This document shows positions 2,818 to 24,534 of a stretch of DNA of 24,534 nucleotides, piece after piece. The first letter of the stretch is position 1. Every line of letters starts with the position of its first letter. The translations under genes were made by a program, and so were the position numbers. Below the pieces are notes generated by a model that did no database searches, was not told the DNA's origin, and worked only from the letters and a program-made list of their open reading frames with translations. The stretch is from a virus. The stretch covers positions 1 through 24,534 of the IMG/VR virus record IMGVR_UViG_3300048837_000015; one strand, given 5' to 3'.

Positions 2818-3017
2818 GATTGCCTCACGAACCGTCCGTCGAAGAACTCGGTGCATGGCCGCGTCCACCAGACCTCGGGTTCCCCCAAAGACCGATAGAT
2901 GACGACAGGAACAAGATCATGTTCCTGTATGCCGAAGCCAACGATTTCATACTGCCCTCCTTTCCGATGGGTCCAGTAGCCGAACTTCGGCTGTGACGAT
3001 GGGTCTGCGATTGTCAT
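2814..3017 (-). CDS. DUF1653-like protein, 67 aa
   Basis: Start at ATG 3017 (MTIADPSSQPKFGYWTHRKG), which overlaps the upstream stop by ATGA. The protein matches the hallmark pattern of DUF1653: a Y-x-H-x-K-G-G-x-Y-E-V/I-x-G opening (YWTHRKGGQYEIVG), then 'L-P-V-V-I-Y-R' and 'W-x-R-P...F-F' (WWTRPCTEFFDG). DUF1653 proteins are small SH3-like beta-barrel domains found in bacteria and phages with no proven function. Length about 67 residues is normal for the family. It sits between a GHKL-like ATPase gene and other small genes; nothing here specifies its partner. Confidence 0.8.
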   Translation of the reverse strand: MTIADPSSQPKFGYWTHRKGGQYEIVGFGIQEHDLVPVVIYRSLGEPEVWWTRPCTEFFDGRFVRQS

Positions 3018-4150
3018 TCCTTGATCATCCCCAAGATTTTGTCGAACAGAAACTGCTGCATTCCGCGCGAGCAGTCGGCGTAACCCATCGTATCGTGGAT
3101 CCATTCCTCGTAGATGGTGATCGCTAGGAAATCCCGACCGTTGTCGAGACACTGACGTGTGAACACCATCTTGCCACCCTTCGCCATAGCGAGGACGCCC
3201 GGCCCAAGATGCTCCACGAAGGTGAGCGCCTCAGGCTTGACGATGCAGTTCAGCTTGGTCAGCATCTCACACGCTTCCGCGACGACCGATGCCTGCGTCT
3301 CGGTCAGCGCGAACTCGGTGTAGTCATTCACGTTCCGAACCAGTTTCAGCAGGTTTCGGTTCGTTTCCTTCAGCTGAGCGTGTTCGCGGAACTTCTCGAT
3401 CGCATCGAGAAACTCCTCGCTCGGTTCAACGCAGTCGGAGAAGTCCAGGTCGTGTTCATAGAACTCGACATGGGGGTCCATCACCTTCACGCAGAACTCG
3501 GGATTGGCGATCCTCGGCAGACGCATACCGAGCTTGTAGTTCGCGTCCCAGACCGAGGCCAGCGTCCGATCCTCGGTCAGGCGCATTTCCGTCGTGAAGT
3601 TGTAGGTGAAACGGGTGGGTTTCAGCAGCTTCTGAACACGAACACCGCGATAGTAGAGAAAATTGCTCTTCCCGCGATAGACCTCGATGCCCTCGCCGAC
3701 GATCCACGGTTCGCCATGCAGGAAAATCTGGCCGCGTTCGCCGTGGACCTTCGAGATTTCAGGCCCTTCGACCACGAACACGGTGTCATTCTCGACGAAC
3801 ACGCCGCCGATGGTGCCACCCTCGTCAATGCAGTTGGCGTAGAGTTCACGATACGCCTGCCAGACCTCCCAGTCACGGCCGAGATCGACGGTGAACCCAA
3901 GCTGCTCTTCGTTCATGTAGACCATGCCGAAGGTCTTGCCACGGATTTCCTTGGGCTTCGTGCGGAACTGGATGGTCTCACCACCCGTGCGCAGGCTGAC
4001 AATGTGGCCCGTGCGGAGAAGGGTCGCGATGGCATATTTCAGGCCGGTGCCGAAGTAGCCAATGGGATTGTCGGTGTCCTTCACGGAGACACCCATAGTG
4101 CGGATCACGTCCAGATCGATGTGACCTTTGTTCGAGAAGTAGATAGCCAT
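3014..4150 (-). CDS. GHKL-like ATP-binding protein with C-terminal EExxH segment
   Basis: A 378-residue protein with two ATP-binding motifs of the GHKL (Hsp90/MutL/gyrase B) superfamily. NPIGYFGTGLKYA (28-40) matches the 'G-x-F-G-x-G-x-K' lid box, and RELYANCIDEGG (101-112) matches the N box (E-x-x-x-N-x-x-D-E). In canonical GHKL proteins the N box precedes the lid box; here the order is reversed, suggesting circular permutation. Near the C-terminus YEEWIHDTMGYADCSRG (347-363) has an E-E-x-x-H pattern followed by an Asp, as in degenerate or divergent zinc-peptidase helices, but whether it is catalytic is unclear. I recall phage homologues labelled only as ATP-binding proteins. The biological role is unknown. 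It is cytoplasmic: no signal or membrane segment. A good start is indicated by GAGAGGCGAAAGAC before ATG 4150. Confidence 0.75.
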   Translation of the reverse strand: MAIYFSNKGHIDLDVIRTMGVSVKDTDNPIGYFGTGLKYAIATLLRTGHIVSLRTGGETIQFRTKPKEIRGKTFGMVYMNEEQLGFTVDLGRDWEVWQAYRELYANCIDEGGTIGGVFVENDTVFVVEGPEISKVHGERGQIFLHGEPWIVGEGIEVYRGKSNFLYYRGVRVQKLLKPTRFTYNFTTEMRLTEDRTLASVWDANYKLGMRLPRIANPEFCVKVMDPHVEFYEHDLDFSDCVEPSEEFLDAIEKFREHAQLKETNRNLLKLVRNVNDYTEFALTETQASVVAEACEMLTKLNCIVKPEALTFVEHLGPGVLAMAKGGKMVFTRQCLDNGRDFLAITIYEEWIHDTMGYADCSRGMQQFLFDKILGMIKE

Positions 4151-4162
4151 GTCTTTCGCCTC

Positions 4163-4411
4163 TCAGGGTTGGTAGCCATGCACACAGTATTGCCCCGGAG
4201 CATCCGGAAGACAATAGCGCGGTGTCTCATGCTGATAAATGACCGGCTTCGGGAAATCTTCGGGGTTCCCATACGCGCGCGTTTCTACTTTACCGTTGCA
4301 GAACGTCTGCTTCATATGGTAGTCACCCCATGAGTAGACCTTGTCAAAGCAGTCGCTGACCGGGGCTGTTGAGCACCCGGCCAGGACCACAAGGAGGAGC
4401 AACCGGCTCAC
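4163..4411 (-). CDS. Small lipoprotein, 82 aa
   Basis: The start is GTG 4411, with GGAGG five bases ahead, overlapping the previous stop (GTGA). The protein begins MSRLLLLVVLAGCSTAPVS: a very short n-region, a hydrophobic core and the lipobox L10-A11-G12-C13, so signal peptidase II should cleave before Cys13 and the protein be lipid-anchored. Ser at +2 favours outer-membrane sorting in Gram-negatives. The 70-residue mature part has five further cysteines/His and no family I recognise; it is not proline-rich like Rz1 spanins. It is translationally coupled to a second exported protein upstream, suggesting an envelope function such as superinfection exclusion (inference, by analogy with phage lipoproteins like T5 Llp). 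Confidence 0.75.
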   Translation of the reverse strand: MSRLLLLVVLAGCSTAPVSDCFDKVYSWGDYHMKQTFCNGKVETRAYGNPEDFPKPVIYQHETPRYCLPDAPGQYCVHGYQP

Positions 4412-5004
4412 AGGAACCTCCGCCCAAAGAGAAGGCCGAGCCCAGAGAGGAGCAGGCCAGCAGGAGCAGGAAGAGGGACTGCCGGAGGCTGCGGCGGTTC
4501 AGGCTCGCAGCACGGAGTCTTCGGAGGCTCGCAGCAGACAACGACGATCGGCGGTTCCCACGGAACTGGAGGAGTAGACGGCGGCTCCCAGACACTGACA
4601 TACAGAGGAGGATTCGGATAAACCCACTCGGTCAAAATCGGAGACGGAGGGATCACCACGGTCCAGTTCTGACACTCGTCCAATTTGGCCATGATCAACG
4701 TTCGGCCAGACTCGTCAACGAACGTGTAGCCCTCGCCATATTGGTCGTCGGCGAAGACCAGTCCTTCTCCCTGCCAATACGGCTTTCCGTCTTTGGCATA
4801 GGACATCTTGAGAACGATGCTCCCTTTCGGAATGACCATCCTCTCCGGAATACCCTCCGGAACCTTGAACTCCTTCACTGCCCACTCATAGGAGCAGACA
4901 CCGTCGCAAGGCGCTCCGCCCGGTGTATACGGGCGAAGAGTAGAAGCTGCACCAGCGGTCGCGAGACACGCCAGAGCAACTGCGAGAACTATCGTCTTGG
5001 ACAT
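4408..5004 (-). CDS. Secreted protein with VPLPA-type (PEP-CTERM-like) sorting signal
   Basis: Start at ATG 5004 (MSKTIVLAVALACLATAGAA), preceded by GGAG at a good distance; the frame is open upstream to 5136, but that extension has no signal character and would overlap the promoter. Residues 1-20 form a typical Sec signal peptide with cleavage near AGA-A. The mature region (about 21-130) is unassigned. It is followed by a Pro/Cys-rich linker (135-175, including CCEPPKTPCCEPEPPQPP), then VPLPA (176-180), a hydrophobic segment (181-193) and GRRFL. Motif, membrane helix and terminal Arg pair at the very C-terminus are the tripartite layout of VPLPA-CTERM proteins, which alphaproteobacterial exosortases process. 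Such a signal on a phage protein is unusual. First gene after promoter P2. Confidence 0.75.
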   Translation of the reverse strand: MSKTIVLAVALACLATAGAASTLRPYTPGGAPCDGVCSYEWAVKEFKVPEGIPERMVIPKGSIVLKMSYAKDGKPYWQGEGLVFADDQYGEGYTFVDESGRTLIMAKLDECQNWTVVIPPSPILTEWVYPNPPLYVSVWEPPSTPPVPWEPPIVVVCCEPPKTPCCEPEPPQPPAVPLPAPAGLLLSGLGLLFGRRFL

Positions 5005-11092: not shown

Positions 11093-11328
11093 TTCTTGCT
11101 CCTGAAGCTGGCGTAGGGATCATCTTTGAGAATGTTCAGCCGCTTCGGTTCGAACGTTCCCTGAGCGCAGGAAGGACATTGGTGAGTATCATTTCCCCGA
11201 TACTTCCAGCCCTCTTCTTGGGCTTCCTCCCATGCGTCTTTGAACTCACGCTCGCTGGACGCATAGGTTTCACCACAGTCTTCACATTCGAAGATTACAT
11301 CTCCATGCTTGTCTCGCGTCGAGGTCAT
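11089..11328 (-). CDS. Zinc-ribbon protein, 79 aa
   Basis: Start at ATG 11328 (MTSTRDKHGDVIFECEDCGE), which shares a base with the FkbM stop (TGATG); the longer frame start at 11400 lies within that gene. Two Cys pairs, C-E-D-C at about 15-18 and C-P-S-C at about 50-53, form a classical zinc ribbon, with an acidic helical stretch between (EREFKDAWEEAQEEGW). Such small ribbons often contact nucleic acid or act as protein modules in transcription or replication. The C-terminus contains a short basic-acidic tail (DDPYASFRSKK). No specific family identified. It is co-translated with dCTP deaminase. Confidence 0.75.
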   Translation of the reverse strand: MTSTRDKHGDVIFECEDCGETYASSEREFKDAWEEAQEEGWKYRGNDTHQCPSCAQGTFEPKRLNILKDDPYASFRSKK

Positions 11329-12032
11329 CACTCTCTCCGATACGCGGCAAGTGTCTGCCACAGGTTTTCTTGGATGCGAGGTTCGCGAGTGGCGACCCAC
11401 CCATCGGCGATGAGAAGCTGATGCGCTTGACGAACAGCCCCGGTGGAGAAACCGTTGATGTGGAATTCCAGAGCGATCTGCTTCAGAGGATATTTCGTGA
11501 GACGCGGCAGTAGATCGAATTCAGCGCCTTCACAGTCGATCTTGGCGACCTCGATGTCAGGGTGTTCGTTGAAAATGTGTTCCACGCTGACACAGGAAAC
11601 TTCGATCTGGAAGCGCCCACGGCGAGCGTGGAGGGAGGAGTTGCCGGGGTTCTTGCCGGTGTTGCTGAGGAACAGCGTGAGCGACTCGAACGGAAGCGGG
11701 GTGAGGGCCGAATTGTAGAGCGTCACCCGGTCGTGATGACCAGCCGTGTTCAGATCCAGCATGTTGTAATTGTTGGGTTCCGGCTCGATTGCGACAACGT
11801 GCTTCGCCCCTTTCTCCAGGGCCAACTTCGTGAAACAGCCGATGTTGGCACCGATGTCGAGAACCACCTTGTCCTCGCATTCCAGAACGCCATAGGCGGC
11901 ATTGATCTCTTTTGCAACATACTGATCGTAAGTTCCTTCACGACCCTTCATGGTTCCTTTGAAACCTTTTGCTGTGATATCGATAAGCTCTCGCTCGTCG
12001 AATTCACCGTCTTTGATTACACCATACTTCAT
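11328..12032 (-). CDS. FkbM-family SAM-dependent methyltransferase
   Basis: Start at ATG 12032 (MKYGVIKDGE), with AGGAGA seven bases upstream and a four-base overlap with the HNH gene; a TTG six codons earlier is unlikely. The 234-residue product has a Rossmann methyltransferase core: motif I VVLDIGANIGCF (56-67), the adenosine-binding acidic loop AIEPEPNNY (81-89), and IDCEGAEFDLL (165-175), the D-x-E-G-x-E signature of FkbM enzymes, which methylate sugar hydroxyls. In phages such genes are usually of unknown target. The glycosyltransferase in the same transcript makes a sugar on DNA or on a virion protein a plausible substrate, but this is inference. The ribosome binding site is contributed by the 3' end of the HNH gene. 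Confidence 0.85.
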   Translation of the reverse strand: MKYGVIKDGEFDERELIDITAKGFKGTMKGREGTYDQYVAKEINAAYGVLECEDKVVLDIGANIGCFTKLALEKGAKHVVAIEPEPNNYNMLDLNTAGHHDRVTLYNSALTPLPFESLTLFLSNTGKNPGNSSLHARRGRFQIEVSCVSVEHIFNEHPDIEVAKIDCEGAEFDLLPRLTKYPLKQIALEFHINGFSTGAVRQAHQLLIADGWVATREPRIQENLWQTLAAYRRE

Positions 12033-12448
12033 GAGTTTCTCCTTCTCCAATGTGTTTCACCCATAGGCATTGTCCCATGGATGTATTTGTCGTCAGAATT
12101 GTCTTGATATGAAGCCCAATAGAGATGTCTCTTATTGATACAGGATCTATTCCCACATTTATGAGCCGACATGAATTTCTCTTCTGTTGGTTCTCCTGGA
12201 CACATCAACCGATGAACATTTCCTCTTCTGTTCCTAGGATATCCCTGAGATGTTAAACCGAAAGGCCAAATTAAACATTCATCACTTTCGTATGATTTTG
12301 CATATTCTAGGAATGCTGTCACTTCATCAGGATGAGCTCTCTTTAGAATAGAGTGCTCTGGATTTCCATACTTCAGAAGTTTTTGATAATGCTTATTACA
12401 CAGACCCCTAGTTCTGCTATCATTATTACATCCTTGAATACTACACAT
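12029..12448 (-). CDS. HNH homing endonuclease (between polymerase and FkbM genes)
   Basis: A 139-residue selfish endonuclease. The N-terminus carries a CxxxxC...C-x2-H zinc-binding segment (CSIQGCNNDSRTRGLCNKHY, 2-21), followed by a linker and the HNH motif SAHKCGNRSCINKRHLYWAS (94-113), with His96, Asn105 and His108 as the likely metal/catalytic set. The coding sequence is visibly more AT-rich than its neighbours and contains none of the CTTGGGC motifs frequent elsewhere, both signs of separate origin. It overlaps the polymerase stop by 8 bases and supplies the ribosome site for the FkbM gene, so it was inserted without breaking the operon. It would cleave cognate DNA lacking the insertion. 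Family assignment is firm; target unknown. Confidence 0.88.
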   Translation of the reverse strand: MCSIQGCNNDSRTRGLCNKHYQKLLKYGNPEHSILKRAHPDEVTAFLEYAKSYESDECLIWPFGLTSQGYPRNRRGNVHRLMCPGEPTEEKFMSAHKCGNRSCINKRHLYWASYQDNSDDKYIHGTMPMGETHWRRRNS

Positions 12449-15680: not shown

Positions 15681-16697
15681 TCAAATCCTCCGCTCGAGCC
15701 ATTCAGTGCAGGCCATGCGCCAGTCCTCGGCGATGATCTGGTCGGCGAACGCCAAAGCGTTCTGCATGAAGTTGGGATTGTCCCGGTCCTTCCAGGCGAA
15801 CCACGACTGCCACATGGGCGTCGCCACCTTCTTGAAGAAACGATCCTGGAGGCCGATCACCGGGCCTTGCTCCATGAACATGGTCAGGTCCTGGAACCAT
15901 TGATCGATCGGACCGTTCACGATCGGGAAGGCACGGACCTTGCCCAAGGAGTAGGGATCGAAGCCGACGCCATTCTTGACGACGTCACCATGCTTCTCGA
16001 GAGTGTTGTGGTAGGAATGGAAGTTCGTGCTGACCTGCCAGTAGGCTCCCATCGGAGCGCCCACCCATGCGGCCATGACTTCCTGCAACACCGAGAAGTG
16101 GACAGCGTTCGCTCCATAGGCACCCCAGATCATGTCGTTGCTGCGATTGAACACCGTCATGTCCAACTTGCCGTAGGGGCTGATGCGGAACGTGCAGATC
16201 AGGTTGCAGGGGAAGTCCTTGCCGTTCATGCCGAGATCGCTGGACGCGTCCCACATTTGCAGCACGACCCGCCGATCGTCCGGGTTCTGGCGCAGCAGAG
16301 ATGCGATGGTCTCCAACTGATCGACCACCCCATCACCATACTGACGGTCGCCCTCGGCAGGCGGGAACCAGTTCCGCCAGCGAGCGCCGTAGGCACCGTG
16401 GAAGGTGACGCCGTCGTCGGAATAGTTGGCGATGTTCGACGAGAACTGGCTGATCCAGGCCACGTCACGCCGACCCGCCATCATCCACAGGCTTTCCATG
16501 AAATGGAAGTAGGGGTTGGCGTCCCGTTCGGGGAAGAACAGCACCCGTTCCTCGGGCCGTTCATAGATGGTGGTGACGGGGGTCGTGAACACGCGAACAG
16601 GACCGTTGCGCGAGTCACGATCGACGCCGTCAACCTGCAACGATTGAAGCCCAAGGACGAGGGCTTCGCTCACGTTGCGGCCAGAGATGATCTTCAT
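15681..16697 (-). CDS. Thymidylate synthase-family enzyme (possible dUMP hydroxymethylase)
   Basis: A 338-residue enzyme of the folate-dependent thymidylate synthase/nucleotide hydroxymethylase family. Visible motifs: GAYGARWRNW (101-110), DDRRVVLQMWD (140-150), DFPCNL (161-166) with nucleophile Cys164, and FNRSNDMIWGAYGANAVHFS (183-202). Asn197 aligns with the Asn that reads the uracil ring in thymidylate synthases (dCMP hydroxymethylases have Asp), so dUMP is the likely substrate. Whether it methylates (making dTMP) or hydroxymethylates (making hmdUMP) cannot be told from these motifs; both types occur in phages. The gene overlaps the glycosyltransferase stop by ATGA and lies close to a thymine-hypermodification family gene, favouring hydroxymethylation. 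Longer than the 264-residue E. coli ThyA by about 75 residues, mostly at the C-terminus. Confidence 0.85.
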   Translation of the reverse strand: MKIISGRNVSEALVLGLQSLQVDGVDRDSRNGPVRVFTTPVTTIYERPEERVLFFPERDANPYFHFMESLWMMAGRRDVAWISQFSSNIANYSDDGVTFHGAYGARWRNWFPPAEGDRQYGDGVVDQLETIASLLRQNPDDRRVVLQMWDASSDLGMNGKDFPCNLICTFRISPYGKLDMTVFNRSNDMIWGAYGANAVHFSVLQEVMAAWVGAPMGAYWQVSTNFHSYHNTLEKHGDVVKNGVGFDPYSLGKVRAFPIVNGPIDQWFQDLTMFMEQGPVIGLQDRFFKKVATPMWQSWFAWKDRDNPNFMQNALAFADQIIAEDWRMACTEWLERRI

Positions 16698-17989
16698 GCG
16701 AGAACTCCATATTGGTCGAACATCAGGTCTTCATATTTCTTGCGGATTGCGGGATCGTCGGTGCCTACCTGCGTTCCGTCAAGGCTGCCGAACGTCAGAG
16801 CGATCAGGTCTTGTGCGACCTGCCGACGATCGAATTGCCAGAGAAGTTCCCGGCCAGCGGCGATCATCTGATCGGCTTGGGATTTGTGCATGTGGCTTGC
16901 ACGAATGACGATCTCGGCATAGTCCATGGCATCACGGGCTTCGCCGACATCGATATAGTGCTCGCCGGCGACGAACAGTTCCGAACCCATGCCGCGAGAT
17001 TGCGCCACAGGGACACAGCCACGGATCATCGCATCCACGACCACGCGGTTCCAGTGACCGCCGACCAGCGAGTATTTCTTGGACCAGGACGGATCGACGA
17101 GAACACGAGCTTGGCTCAGCCACTGGTCGACTTCGGTTGTGTCCCAGTAGTCGTGGTGAACCATGCCGTTCGCCAGCGCAGCGTCCCAGAACTTCTCGCC
17201 GGAAAAGTCGAAGTCAGTCCCTTCGACCACGCCGTGGAAATAGTTCTCTTTGCACTTGTCCTCGGAGGTCATGTATTGATATTCGATCCCCTTGCCAGCG
17301 ACCTCACGAAGTTCGCCCGGAAACTTCTTGGGCATGTAGGCGATGGCCTCGACGAGTTCGTGAACATGCTTCCACGCCTTGAACGTCTGCATGTTGACGA
17401 ACCCAGGACGCTTGGCATCCCAGCCGATGATGTCACGAACCGGCTTGTCCTGCGGGTTCAGGATCAGCGCCCGAGGGACAGTCAGATGGTCTGCACCATT
17501 GAGAGCGCACCCGTGGACGCAGGCGACCGCCGTGAGATGTTCCTGGATGTGAAGGATGTGCGGCGATCCGGCCTTGGCGTTGCCATCGTGGATGAAGGCA
17601 ATCTGCTTGACCTTGGGGTTCAGATCGTAGAGGTCCGGCCACTTGTCGTTGCCGAGATGCTGCTTGTTCTTGGGCGGGACCGGCACAGTCCAGATGACCA
17701 TGTCGTAACCATTCAGGATTTGCTGCGCAGACTGAACGCCGATCGAGGTCTTGTAGGGAATGCGTTGTTCGCGCTTGAAGTTCCAGCCCTTGCCCTGATG
17801 GAAAGGAATGCCGCTGGGACCGAGTTCGGTCGGACCGGTGCGATTGACGGAACTGACGCGATCGGCGTAGACCAGTTCCCGAAAATCAACTCGGTGGCCC
17901 AAGTCTTGCAGGCCACCGATCAGTTGTTCCGTGTGGTTGATAATGCCTCCGAGATCCATGCAGGAATGGAGGGCCACGCATATTTTCAT
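16694..17989 (-). CDS. GT-B glycosyltransferase (GT4-like)
   Basis: A 431-residue two-domain glycosyltransferase. The N-terminal acceptor domain opens with MKICVALHSCMDLGGIINHT, a beta strand followed by a Gly-rich loop as in GT4 enzymes, and includes QIAFIHDGN (129-137). The donor domain starts with GFVNMQTFKAWKHVHELVEA (196-215), and LVDPSWSKKYSLVGGHWNRV to RGCVPVA (297-329) matches the nucleotide-sugar site 'N/E-x-x-x-x-x-E/D-A-x-x-x-G-x-P-V-V'. It is cytoplasmic, with no signal or membrane segment. First gene after promoter P5 (GGAG before the ATG) and ATGA-coupled to the thymidylate synthase-family gene, suggesting that it glycosylates the hydroxymethylated base in DNA. A virion or cell-surface target cannot be excluded. 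Donor sugar unknown. Confidence 0.8.
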   Translation of the reverse strand: MKICVALHSCMDLGGIINHTEQLIGGLQDLGHRVDFRELVYADRVSSVNRTGPTELGPSGIPFHQGKGWNFKREQRIPYKTSIGVQSAQQILNGYDMVIWTVPVPPKNKQHLGNDKWPDLYDLNPKVKQIAFIHDGNAKAGSPHILHIQEHLTAVACVHGCALNGADHLTVPRALILNPQDKPVRDIIGWDAKRPGFVNMQTFKAWKHVHELVEAIAYMPKKFPGELREVAGKGIEYQYMTSEDKCKENYFHGVVEGTDFDFSGEKFWDAALANGMVHHDYWDTTEVDQWLSQARVLVDPSWSKKYSLVGGHWNRVVVDAMIRGCVPVAQSRGMGSELFVAGEHYIDVGEARDAMDYAEIVIRASHMHKSQADQMIAAGRELLWQFDRRQVAQDLIALTFGSLDGTQVGTDDPAIRKKYEDLMFDQYGVLA

Positions 17990-20056: not shown

Positions 20057-21922
20057 TTAATCGGCGCAGGCTCCGGTCTTGCGGCCGAACTCATCCAGAG
20101 TGCAGGCACCGCTGAACCCGTCCTCTTCCTGAAGAGCCATGACCTTGGCATGTTCTTCGTCTTGAGCTTCATTGCCGTCGACTGCCTTGATCGGCTCATC
20201 ATAGTTCCCGGCCGGACGATAGGTGGTGCAGCCCTTCGCACCATTCTCCCACGCCATGAGGTAGAGTTCCTTGAACTCGTCGAACTTGAAGTCCGTGGGA
20301 ACATTGCAGGTCTTGCTGACGGCGCTGTCGATGTGGCGCTGCGCCGTGCAGAGGACACCGACGTGCTGAGCAGCGGTGATCTGTCCGCCAGCCACGGTCC
20401 GGCCCTTGACGCCCAAGTAGGCGACGCCATAGTCCGGGATTTGCACCGTCTTCATGCCATCCTTCATGATGACGTTGCGCTTCTGTTCGTAGGCGATCAC
20501 AGGCTCGATGCCGGACGAGACGTTGTCAGCATAGAGCGAGATGGTGCCGGTGGGAGCGATCGAGGTCAGATGGCTGTTCCGGATACCATACTTCTTGATC
20601 AGCGCCTTGGTGTCGTCCCACAGACCGCGAATGAAGTTGCCCTTCATGTAGCGCTCTTCGTCGTAGAGCGGGAACGCACCCTTCTCCTTCGCCAGCAGAG
20701 CCGATGCCTGATAGCAGTGGTTGGCGATGAATTCCATCAGCTGATCTTCGAAGGCCAGGAAGTCTTCGCTGCCGTAGGGATAGCCGAGGGCTTCCAGAGC
20801 GTTGGCGAGGCCGGTCACACCGAGACCCATGCGCCGCTTCCTTTGGGCTTCCAGCTTCTGCTGCGGAAGCGGATAGCGGCTCCGGTCGATGACATTGTCC
20901 ATCGCACGGACGACGAGCGGGATATCGGAGGCGAGAAGGTCCCAGTCGAACGAATAGGAACCGTCGGCGTTCTTGATCAGATACTTCACCACGTTGAAGG
21001 AGCCCAAGAGGCAGGCACCATACGGAGGAAGCGGCTGCTCGCCACAGGGATTGGTCGCTGCGATCGTCTCGCAATACCAGAGGTTGTTCATGCGATTGAT
21101 CGTGTCGATGAACAGGACGCCCGGCTCGGCCCAGTCGTAGTTCCCGCGCATGATCATGTCCCAGAGAGCCTGGGAATCGACTTCGCGGTAGTTCTTGCCG
21201 CCAAACTTCAGCATGAACGGCTTGCCGGTGGAGACGCATTCCATCAGTTCATCGGTGACACCGACCGACATGTTGAACCCACGGAGAGGACGCATGTCCC
21301 AGGGAATGTCCGGATTGGAGACCTGCTTCGCCCGGATGAACTTCTCGATGTCCGGATGGTCGCAGCGAAGAACAGCCATCTGGGCACCACGACGGTTCCC
21401 GGCCGAGGCTGTCGCGCGACACACGCTGTCGAAGATGTTGGCGAAAGCCAACGGGCCGTCTGTCACGGACTGGACGCCACGGATGATATCGCCGGAGGGG
21501 CGCAGCGTTGAGAAGTCGTAGCCGACACCGCCACCCTGACGCATGGTAATCGCGGCCAGCTTGGCGACGTCCATGATGGACTCGGAGCTGAACGCGCCGG
21601 TGCCCTTCTCGATCATGCGTTCGGCTTCGGTCGGACCGTCGGTGAAACTGTCATGAATGGTCGGCATCACGAAGCAGTTGTAGAGCGTCACATTCTTGAG
21701 CGAACCTGCGCCTGCGAGAACACGACCGGGCGGAGAGAACCGCTGGTCCATGATCGTGTCACGAAAGCCCATGTAGTGCTCGTGATTGTCCTGGAGAAAC
21801 CCAGCGACGCGGTTCATCGCTTCCCTGTGGTTCTCGTTCTCACCGCGATATTTTTCCCCGCCGATAGCGTCGCAGTATGGGTTCTGTGGTCCGACCATTC
21901 GTTTGGTCTCCTGAGTGCGCAT
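20057..21922 (-). CDS. nrdJ: Class II (adenosylcobalamin-dependent) ribonucleotide reductase
   Basis: A 621-residue enzyme that makes deoxyribonucleotides from ribonucleotides using a B12-derived radical. Signatures: RVLAGAGSLKNVTLYNCFVM (67-86, redox Cys83), GGGVGYDFSTLRPSGD (130-145), ATNPCGEQPLPPYGACLLGS (289-308) with thiyl Cys293 and redox Cys304, GVTGLANALEALG, and SIAPTGTISLYADN. The C-terminus carries a Cys pair in ACTLDEFGRKTGAC (about 606-619), presumably for reduction by thioredoxin-like partners. No ATP-cone is present, and no NrdB partner in the window, both as expected for class II. It supplies dNTPs for phage replication, but depends on host cobalamin. It follows an HNH gene, with GAAGGGAAAC before ATG 21922. 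It is somewhat shorter than many cellular NrdJ proteins. Confidence 0.93.
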   Translation of the reverse strand: MRTQETKRMVGPQNPYCDAIGGEKYRGENENHREAMNRVAGFLQDNHEHYMGFRDTIMDQRFSPPGRVLAGAGSLKNVTLYNCFVMPTIHDSFTDGPTEAERMIEKGTGAFSSESIMDVAKLAAITMRQGGGVGYDFSTLRPSGDIIRGVQSVTDGPLAFANIFDSVCRATASAGNRRGAQMAVLRCDHPDIEKFIRAKQVSNPDIPWDMRPLRGFNMSVGVTDELMECVSTGKPFMLKFGGKNYREVDSQALWDMIMRGNYDWAEPGVLFIDTINRMNNLWYCETIAATNPCGEQPLPPYGACLLGSFNVVKYLIKNADGSYSFDWDLLASDIPLVVRAMDNVIDRSRYPLPQQKLEAQRKRRMGLGVTGLANALEALGYPYGSEDFLAFEDQLMEFIANHCYQASALLAKEKGAFPLYDEERYMKGNFIRGLWDDTKALIKKYGIRNSHLTSIAPTGTISLYADNVSSGIEPVIAYEQKRNVIMKDGMKTVQIPDYGVAYLGVKGRTVAGGQITAAQHVGVLCTAQRHIDSAVSKTCNVPTDFKFDEFKELYLMAWENGAKGCTTYRPAGNYDEPIKAVDGNEAQDEEHAKVMALQEEDGFSGACTLDEFGRKTGACAD

Positions 21923-23706: not shown

Positions 23707-24534
23707 TCAGAACGGAATGTCTTCGTCGTCGCCCGAGGAGCCACCACGGTTCTGACTGCCGCCGCCCGAGGAACTGCCCTCGTCGTCGCCGCCGGTCTTG
23801 GCGATGGAGTCGAAGTCGGCACGAGCCAGCCCGTTCTCGATCATGTCCGCGAAGTCCTTGGCTTCCTTCAGGAGGGCCATGCCTTCCGGCGAGCCGGGGT
23901 TGATCAGCGACAGACGCCACGTCTCTTCCATCGGGCTGATCTTGTAGTTGTAGAACGTGCCGGAGTCGTTCTTCTGCTTCGACGTGCTGATCTTGCAGCG
24001 GTTGGCGAAGATCGGCGGCGAGCCCTTCTGGGTATACATCGCCGTCATCCAGTCCTTGTGGACCTTGATCTTGGTCGACGAGAAGCTCAGGACACAGTAG
24101 CCCTCGGTCTCGGTGCCGTCCTCGTTCATGATCAGGCAGTAGACGTAATACGTCTCCACCAGATCATTGCCGCCCGGTGACTTGAACGGGATGCGCTTGC
24201 CGTCGGCATCCTTGGGCGGAATGCGCGAGCCGCCGTTCTTGGCGATCGCATCCTTGTAGACCTGCGAGTCGAGCTCATGCCGATCGACGAGACCGCCGCC
24301 CTTGGTCCGGGGAACCCATTCGACGACCGCCGCTTCCTTGTAGACGGGGATGATCACCACCGGCTGCTTCAGGATTTCCTTGGTCACCGAGTTGACCAGA
24401 TCGCCGGCCTTGCAGCCCTCGATCAGCTGATCCTCGACCTCGGGGGAGTTGGATTGCAGCACGTTGATGAAGGGAATGGAAAGATCGGTGATCTTCGTCC
24501 CTTCGAAGCCCGCGTGGGCGTATTCACCGTAGTC
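23707..24534 (-). CDS. Putative single-strand DNA-binding protein (5' end cut by window)
   Basis: The frame stays open to the right edge (residues DYGEYAHAGFEGTKITDLSI precede the first internal start codon, GTG 24462), so the N-terminus is outside the window; 275 residues are visible. The body is an alpha/beta region (ILKQPVVIIPVYKEAAVVEW, TETEGYCVLSFSSTKIKVHK) without a motif I can name, and matches in pattern a conserved phage protein found near recombination genes. The C-terminus is Gly/Ser/Asp-rich and ends GDDEDIPF, the acidic tail typical of single-strand DNA-binding proteins, used to recruit partners. I therefore call it SSB-like; the OB fold itself is not evident from sequence. High-GC codon use and a terminator right after it suggest an abundantly made protein. 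Confidence 0.65.
   Translation of the reverse strand, partial: DYGEYAHAGFEGTKITDLSIPFINVLQSNSPEVEDQLIEGCKAGDLVNSVTKEILKQPVVIIPVYKEAAVVEWVPRTKGGGLVDRHELDSQVYKDAIAKNGGSRIPPKDADGKRIPFKSPGGNDLVETYYVYCLIMNEDGTETEGYCVLSFSSTKIKVHKDWMTAMYTQKGSPPIFANRCKISTSKQKNDSGTFYNYKISPMEETWRLSLINPGSPEGMALLKEAKDFADMIENGLARADFDSIAKTGGDDEGSSSGGGSQNRGGSSGDDEDIPF

What the first reader, a model, noticed from the sequence alone, without database searches (positions are those of the whole stretch)
4408..5004. Phage protein with a VPLPA-type exosortase sorting signal
The protein has a signal peptide, a Pro/Cys-rich linker and a C-terminal VPLPA motif, hydrophobic helix and Arg pair, all in the right order at the extreme end. 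These signals are read by host exosortases and are a bacterial surface-sorting system. A phage using it would hijack host machinery to place a protein in the envelope or exopolymer. It also points to a host with exosortase, most likely a rhodobacteral.
Basis: partly seen in the sequence, partly recalled or inferred. Interest (0 to 1): 0.75.

Follow-up and report, generated by a model that had tools for sequence, protein, structure and literature searches.

The report
Phage protein carrying host surface-sorting signal
This bacteriophage fragment, probably from a virus of marine rhodobacteral bacteria, encodes a secreted protein whose tail looks like the tag that such bacteria's own exosortase enzymes cut to send proteins to the cell surface; a close relative of the phage carries an unmistakable version of that tag, so phages may borrow this host system.

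Summary
On the minus strand (4408-5004) a 198-aa protein has a signal peptide, a ~100-aa domain, a Pro/Cys linker and the terminus AVPLPAPAGLLLSGLGLLFGRRFL. Curated models do not call it: VPLPA-CTERM TIGR03370 gives no hit on the whole protein and 12.0 bits on the tail (cut-off 25.35); PEP-CTERM PF07589 gives 16.9 (cut-off 20.7). A relative settles the family: in a syntenic phage (replication proteins about 70-87% identical), the ~48%-identical homologue ends in SPVPVPAAAWLLASGIAVFGFMKGKK and passes TIGR03370 (29.2 bits). A model built without this family scores the window tail 19.9 bits, against at most 7.4 for unrelated ORF ends and 8.6 for shuffles. The CbK-like Ruegeria phage DSS3P8 has the same domain and a C-terminal hydrophobic helix, but no recognisable motif. 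The phage is related to YuA/M6-like phages; Rhodobacterales hosts are likely but unproven. They often carry the VPLPA-specific exosortase XrtD; none of the phage records searched does. Best reading: a fast-evolving accessory envelope protein handed to host XrtD, perhaps for superinfection exclusion or surface modification (inferred). Some unrelated phage contigs also carry VPLPA-tailed proteins.

The parts
4408..5004 (-). 198-aa secreted phage protein with C-terminal exosortase-type sorting tail (P0001)
   Evidence: homologues in L001, L005, L017, DSS3P8, vB_RpoS-V10
4942..5004 (-). signal peptide, residues 1 to about 21 (MSKTIVLAVALACLATAGAAS), signal peptidase I type; homologues end ASA-S and ANA-A
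   Evidence: sequence; hydropathy 2.43 over residues 5-19; alignment
4648..4941 (-). conserved domain, about residues 22-119, with invariant C33, C37, C111 and motifs YTPGG, YEWA, MSYA, LDxCQNW; one helix and six strands predicted
   Evidence: alignment; AlphaFold2 pLDDT 70-83 over most of residues 41-120
4480..4647 (-). Pro/Cys-rich linker, about residues 120-175
   Evidence: 21 Pro and 4 Cys in 57 residues
4408..4479 (-). VPLPA motif (residues 177-181), 14-residue hydrophobic stretch, RRFL terminus, stop
   Evidence: tail codon changes mostly synonymous
4163..4411 (-). 82-aa predicted lipoprotein (lipobox LVVLAGC), start GTG overlapping the stop of P0001 (GTGA); relatives found only in L001's contig

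Best explanation
P0001 is a phage-encoded exosortase substrate of the VPLPA type. It is exported by Sec and its signal peptide is cleaved. The C-terminal VPLPA, short hydrophobic helix and Arg pair hold it in the inner membrane, where host exosortase (most likely XrtD) cuts near VPLPA. The small Cys-containing domain on its Pro-rich stalk is then released to the outer envelope or exopolysaccharide layer of the infected cell. Because the gene sits in the replication-gene operon, outside any virion module, and evolves faster than its neighbours, the likely job is to alter the surface of the infected cell: superinfection exclusion or masking of receptor or exopolysaccharide. Shown: architecture, conservation, the above-cut-off signal in a homologue, and position in the genome. 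Inferred: export, exosortase cleavage, host identity, early expression and purpose.
For: Complete architecture. Homologues in a syntenic sister phage and its near copy pass TIGR03370 at 29.2 and 27.9 bits against a cut-off of 25.35. The same tail is found independently by a DNA pattern scan for VP[LV]PA[AG][AG]W. The window tail scores 19.9 bits with an HMM trained without this family, against a background maximum of 7.4 and shuffle maximum of 8.6. Mostly synonymous change in the tail. The 14-residue hydrophobic stretch equals that described for PEP-CTERM by Haft et al. 2006 (PMC1569441). XrtD is common on Rhodobacterales plasmids, and Jannaschia sp. CCS1 carries XrtD near its own VPLPA-CTERM protein. 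The same domain occurs in two R. pomeroyi phages. The gene lies among primase, ligase and DNA polymerase genes and is displaced relative to conserved neighbours in the sister phage.
Against: The curated models miss the window protein and stay below cut-off on the bare tail. The DSS3P8 and V10 homologues lack a recognisable motif and basic pair (score 1.0), so the domain can work with a plain anchor. Host and host exosortase are not identified. The fold gives no functional clue. No localisation or cleavage data exist.
Confidence: 0.62

Rival explanations
1. Plain type I membrane protein: the C-terminal helix and Arg pair only anchor the domain in the inner membrane facing the periplasm, and the VPLPA resemblance comes from a Pro-rich stalk running into a helix. 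It could still act in superinfection exclusion, but without exosortase.
For: Curated models are not passed. The DSS3P8 and V10 homologues have a C-terminal hydrophobic helix without the motif. The linker is 37% proline.
Against: Homologues in the sister phage and its near copy pass the VPLPA-CTERM cut-off at the same position. The window tail is far above background for the motif type. Conservative evolution of the tail.
Confidence: 0.25
2. Lysis protein: P0001 and the overlapping lipoprotein gene form a spanin-like pair bridging inner and outer membranes.
For: Membrane protein followed by a lipoprotein gene with a GTGA overlap, reminiscent of spanin pairs.
Against: Inner-membrane spanins carry an N-terminal anchor, whereas this protein has a cleavable-type signal peptide and a C-terminal anchor. 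The lipoprotein was not found next to the homologues in L005 and DSS3P8. No lysis gene was identified nearby; the identified neighbours are replication genes.
Confidence: 0.05
3. Virion component displayed on the particle, for example a decoration or receptor-binding accessory, with the tail as a remnant of a captured host gene.
For: Fast evolution compared with core genes (about 48% against 70-87%) is typical of surface proteins.
Against: Not in a structural module in any phage where the context was seen. Signal peptide plus membrane tail would remove it from cytoplasmic virion assembly. No host homologue was confirmed in the genome collection by pattern scan.
Confidence: 0.05

Closest known systems
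VPLPA-CTERM proteins (TIGR03370), substrates of exosortase D (XrtD), e.g. near xrtD on the Jannaschia sp. CCS1 and Roseobacter litoralis plasmids
   Same: Signal peptide; C-terminal VPLPA; short hydrophobic helix of about 14-15 residues; basic end. The sister-phage homologues pass the model.
   Different: Phage-encoded; the window tail is below the curated cut-off (PAG after VPLPA instead of the frequent AAW or AGW, only two basic residues); unrelated N-terminal domain; not next to an exosortase gene.
PEP-CTERM / EpsH system (Haft et al. 2006, PMC1569441)
   Same: Motif, hydrophobic stretch and basic end at the extreme C-terminus; partial PF07589 match of 16.9 bits
   Different: No PEP tripeptide in the motif; below the Pfam cut-off; no exosortase in the phage
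DSS3P8 gp086 and vB_RpoS-V10_86 (phages of Ruegeria pomeroyi DSS-3)
   Same: Same domain (about 53% identity over 98 aa), signal peptide, Pro-rich linker, C-terminal hydrophobic helix
   Different: CbK-like phages, not YuA-like; tail APVPLGMSIVYMGLALAGLAFFKGNAINT without recognisable VPLPA signal or basic pair; linker without Cys
Early envelope proteins of phages used in superinfection exclusion (e.g. T5 Llp, T4 Imm; from general knowledge)
   Same: Small, secreted or membrane phage proteins made early; works-like comparison only
   Different: No sequence or fold relation shown; different anchoring

Membership tests
VPLPA-CTERM sorting-signal proteins (TIGR03370) | Match to the curated model above cut-off (window protein) | tested here: not met
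   No hit with whole protein; 12.0 bits on bare tail, cut-off 25.35
VPLPA-CTERM sorting-signal proteins (TIGR03370) | Match above cut-off in a homologous protein of a related phage | tested here: met
   P0005 29.2 bits; P0007 27.9 bits
VPLPA-CTERM sorting-signal proteins (TIGR03370) | VPLPA motif, hydrophobic helix, basic cluster within about 25 residues of the C-terminus | tested here: met
   VPLPA-PAGLLLSGLGLLFG-RRFL; basic cluster is only RR
VPLPA-CTERM sorting-signal proteins (TIGR03370) | N-terminal signal peptide | tested here: met
   By sequence and hydropathy only; SignalP not available
VPLPA-CTERM sorting-signal proteins (TIGR03370) | Cognate exosortase in the same cell | not testable with these tools
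   Host unknown; no exosortase in window, relatives or DSS3P8/V10; none on DSS-3 megaplasmid; DSS-3 chromosome not available
PEP-CTERM (PF07589 / TIGR02595) | Match above curated cut-off | tested here: not met
   7.4 bits whole, 16.9 bits tail, cut-off 20.7
Spanin pair | N-terminally anchored inner-membrane protein plus outer-membrane lipoprotein | tested here: not met
   C-terminal anchor; lipoprotein not found next to homologues

The most novel reading that the evidence does not exclude
Phages of Rhodobacterales make early surface proteins carrying their host's exosortase address tag, so that host XrtD releases them into the exopolysaccharide or outer envelope of the infected cell. The tag is kept in phages of exosortase-positive hosts and lost in phages of exosortase-negative ones. 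Unrelated phages (L032, L030, L028) have evolved the same trick.
Probability: 0.4. Interest if true: 0.75.

Novelty: new variant of a known kind. Interest (0 to 1): 0.56.

Why it matters
Exosortase signals are known from bacterial genomes and linked to exopolysaccharide and envelope sorting. The literature searches here turned up no paper on a phage protein using them. If confirmed, this is a host post-translational sorting pathway exploited by phages, a new way of remodelling the surface of the infected cell, and a sequence tag that predicts exosortase-positive hosts for uncultured phages. The two R. pomeroyi phages that lack the tag offer a natural comparison.

Tried and rejected
Homologues in the prokaryote genome collection: none confirmed, so not an obviously recent host capture (pattern-limited scan). 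Homologues in plasmids: none credible. A 28-base probe for the R. pomeroyi genome found nothing, so the DSS-3 chromosome could not be checked for exosortase. Fold searches gave no informative match; the only viral hit at E<0.001 is A0A1B0UZY4, a 203-aa protein at 40% identity, unnamed in the tables and probably DSS3P8 gp086. A scan for the window's motif variant ([VIM]P[LF]PAPAG[LF]-like) found 17 viral contigs, of which only the window's near copy has it in a C-terminal sorting architecture, so the bare motif is not informative by itself. A signal-peptidase II lipobox in P0001 (C13) was considered and rejected: not conserved in homologues. Of the VPLPA-tailed contigs from the pattern scan, L018 lies beyond an integrase and is probably a host flank; L022, L025, L027 and L031 carry the same spurious 56-codon reading frame.

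Full report
Observation. The window is a 24,534-base virus record. On the minus strand, 5004 to 4408 encodes 198 aa: MSKTIVLAVALACLATAGAAS, then a domain, a Pro/Cys linker, and AVPLPAPAGLLLSGLGLLFGRRFL at the extreme end. A GGAG site precedes the ATG, and homologues start at the same place.

Curated models. NCBIfam gives no family for the whole protein. With the bare tail, VPLPA-CTERM TIGR03370 scores 12.0 bits against a cut-off of 25.35, and Pfam PEP-CTERM 16.9 against 20.7.

Homologues. A near-identical copy lies in IMG/VR contig 3300029891_000010 (96%). A homologue (P0005, about 48%) lies in IMG/VR 3300003868_000001, 62.8 kb, and a near copy of that (P0007) in 3300000233_000055. More distant homologues are DSS3P8 gp086 and vB_RpoS-V10_86, from phages of Ruegeria pomeroyi DSS-3 (DSS3P8 is described as a lytic CbK-like siphovirus in PMC4961962). 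None was confirmed in bacterial genomes.

The decisive comparison. P0005 ends in SPVPVPAAAWLLASGIAVFGFMKGKKHVQSL and passes TIGR03370 at 29.2 bits, E 6.5e-7; P0007 scores 27.9. Their contig is a true relative of the window phage: most of the window ORFs tested match it, nearly all in the same order, with primase, polymerase, RNR and helicase 81-82% identical and the 251-aa gene at 23707-24462 87%. Thus a homologous protein in a sister phage carries a certified VPLPA-CTERM signal exactly where the window protein has its weaker one.

Chance test. A strict tail pattern (P-x-P motif, 13-19 residues, two basic residues, end) picked 13 of 1,481 distinct ORF C-termini, all from the window family or VPLPA-type proteins. 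Several of those loci were fetched because they carry VPLPA motifs, so the count is not unbiased; the useful part is that no unrelated ORF matches. An HMM trained on 13 tails of bacterial and other phage-contig VPLPA proteins, without the window family, scores the window tail 19.9 and its near copy 15.7; the best unrelated ORF end scores 7.4 and the best of 2,000 shuffles of the window tail 8.6. DSS3P8 scores 1.0, below the best of its own shuffles (15.9). Between the window and its near copy, the last 28 codons differ at six, five synonymous and one V to I.

Anatomy. Haft et al. 2006 (PMC1569441) describe a motif at the membrane surface, a 14-residue hydrophobic stretch and a basic end; the window tail has VPLPA, 14 residues and RR. 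The domain has invariant C33, C37 and C111 and several invariant aromatic residues. AlphaFold2 on four sequences gives a helix and six strands, pLDDT mostly 70-83, with the tail unresolved; no solved structure matches by sequence or convincingly by fold.

Genome setting. The flanking genes with matches run leftward and have replication or nucleotide functions: DNA ligase, primase, dCTP deaminase-like protein, DNA polymerase, thymidylate synthase, class II RNR, Dda-like helicase. In the sister phage the ligase, DUF7168 and phrog_8203 genes are all present, but P0001 and the lipoprotein are missing between them (about 100 bases separate the DUF7168 and phrog_8203 matches); its P0001 homologue lies about 8 kb away. 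In DSS3P8 the gene lies between a SNF2 helicase and an HD hydrolase, near the DNA polymerase. So it behaves as a mobile accessory gene of replication modules, and it diverges faster than the core. The overlapping downstream gene (4163-4411) encodes a predicted lipoprotein found otherwise only in the near copy's contig.

Host and exosortase. Primase and thymidylate synthase resemble those of YuA/M6-like phages; the RNR gene also matches Rhodobacter phage RcSimone-Hastad. The shared domain in Ruegeria phages points to Rhodobacterales. Jannaschia sp. CCS1 plasmid p1 carries XrtD, annotated as VPLPA-CTERM-specific, close to a VPLPA-CTERM protein; 24 plasmid records hold a match covering at least 80% of XrtD, nearly all of the listed ones from Rhodobacterales. 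No exosortase is in the phage records or on the DSS-3 megaplasmid, which also has no VPLPA-CTERM match. The DSS-3 chromosome was not available, so whether the motif-less DSS3P8 tail goes with an exosortase-less host is open.

Wider occurrence. A scan for VP[LV]PA[AG][AG]W in IMG/VR gave 15 contigs. Besides this family, L032 (between a RecE-like exonuclease and an endolysin), L030 (near a Sak-like annealing protein and an HNH endonuclease) and L028 (with endolysin and exonuclease genes on the contig) carry unrelated signal-peptide proteins with such tails. TIGR03370 scores found in the record-level search are 30.5, 18.1 and 32.5 bits; on the whole proteins 17.1, 19.1 and 33.7. Literature searches for PEP-CTERM or exosortase together with phage listed no paper whose title or abstract describes a phage-encoded substrate; one mentions virus-borne proteins of a family with a putative exosortase-interaction domain, TIGR03118, in hot-spring viruses (PMC11003980). 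The library is partial.

Interpretation. Best explanation: an accessory phage protein exported by Sec, held by its tail and processed by host exosortase XrtD, placing a small Cys-containing domain on a Pro-rich stalk at the surface or in the exopolymer of the infected cell, probably for superinfection exclusion or surface modification. Export, cleavage, host identity, early timing and purpose are inferred. The main rival is a plain C-terminal anchor, favoured by the DSS3P8 homologues and by the sub-threshold score. A spanin-like role and a virion role are unlikely.

Verdict. Observation confirmed; interpretation partly supported; a new variant of a known kind (a phage-encoded exosortase-type substrate).

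Noticed in passing
4163-4411 (-): An 82-aa predicted lipoprotein (lipobox LVVLAGC) overlaps the stop codon of P0001 (GTGA); relatives found only in L001's contig.
   Followed up: partly
11328-12050 (-): FkbM-family methyltransferase (TIGR01444, 79 bits, cut-off 37.7) within the replication operon.
   Followed up: partly
16694-17989 (-): Glycosyltransferase-like protein (weak PF00534, just below cut-off) next to thymidylate synthase; possibly part of DNA or surface modification.
   Followed up: no
L032:10007-10567, L030:1766-2287, L028:11571-12056: Unrelated phage contigs encode signal-peptide proteins with VPLPA-type tails, on contigs with phage recombination or lysis genes.
   Followed up: partly
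3014-4150 (-): phrog_8203 protein (378 aa), 76% identical in the sister phage, function unknown; N-terminus looks ATPase-like (rIIA or HSP90-type) by eye.
   Followed up: no
20057-21922 (-): Adenosylcobalamin-dependent (class II) ribonucleotide reductase NrdJ, above the curated cut-off.
   Followed up: no
H43, plasmid record NZ_CP061940.1: A plasmid record labelled Bacillus velezensis holds a partial XrtD-like match (46% identity), odd for a Gram-positive; perhaps a mislabelled or contaminated record.
   Followed up: no
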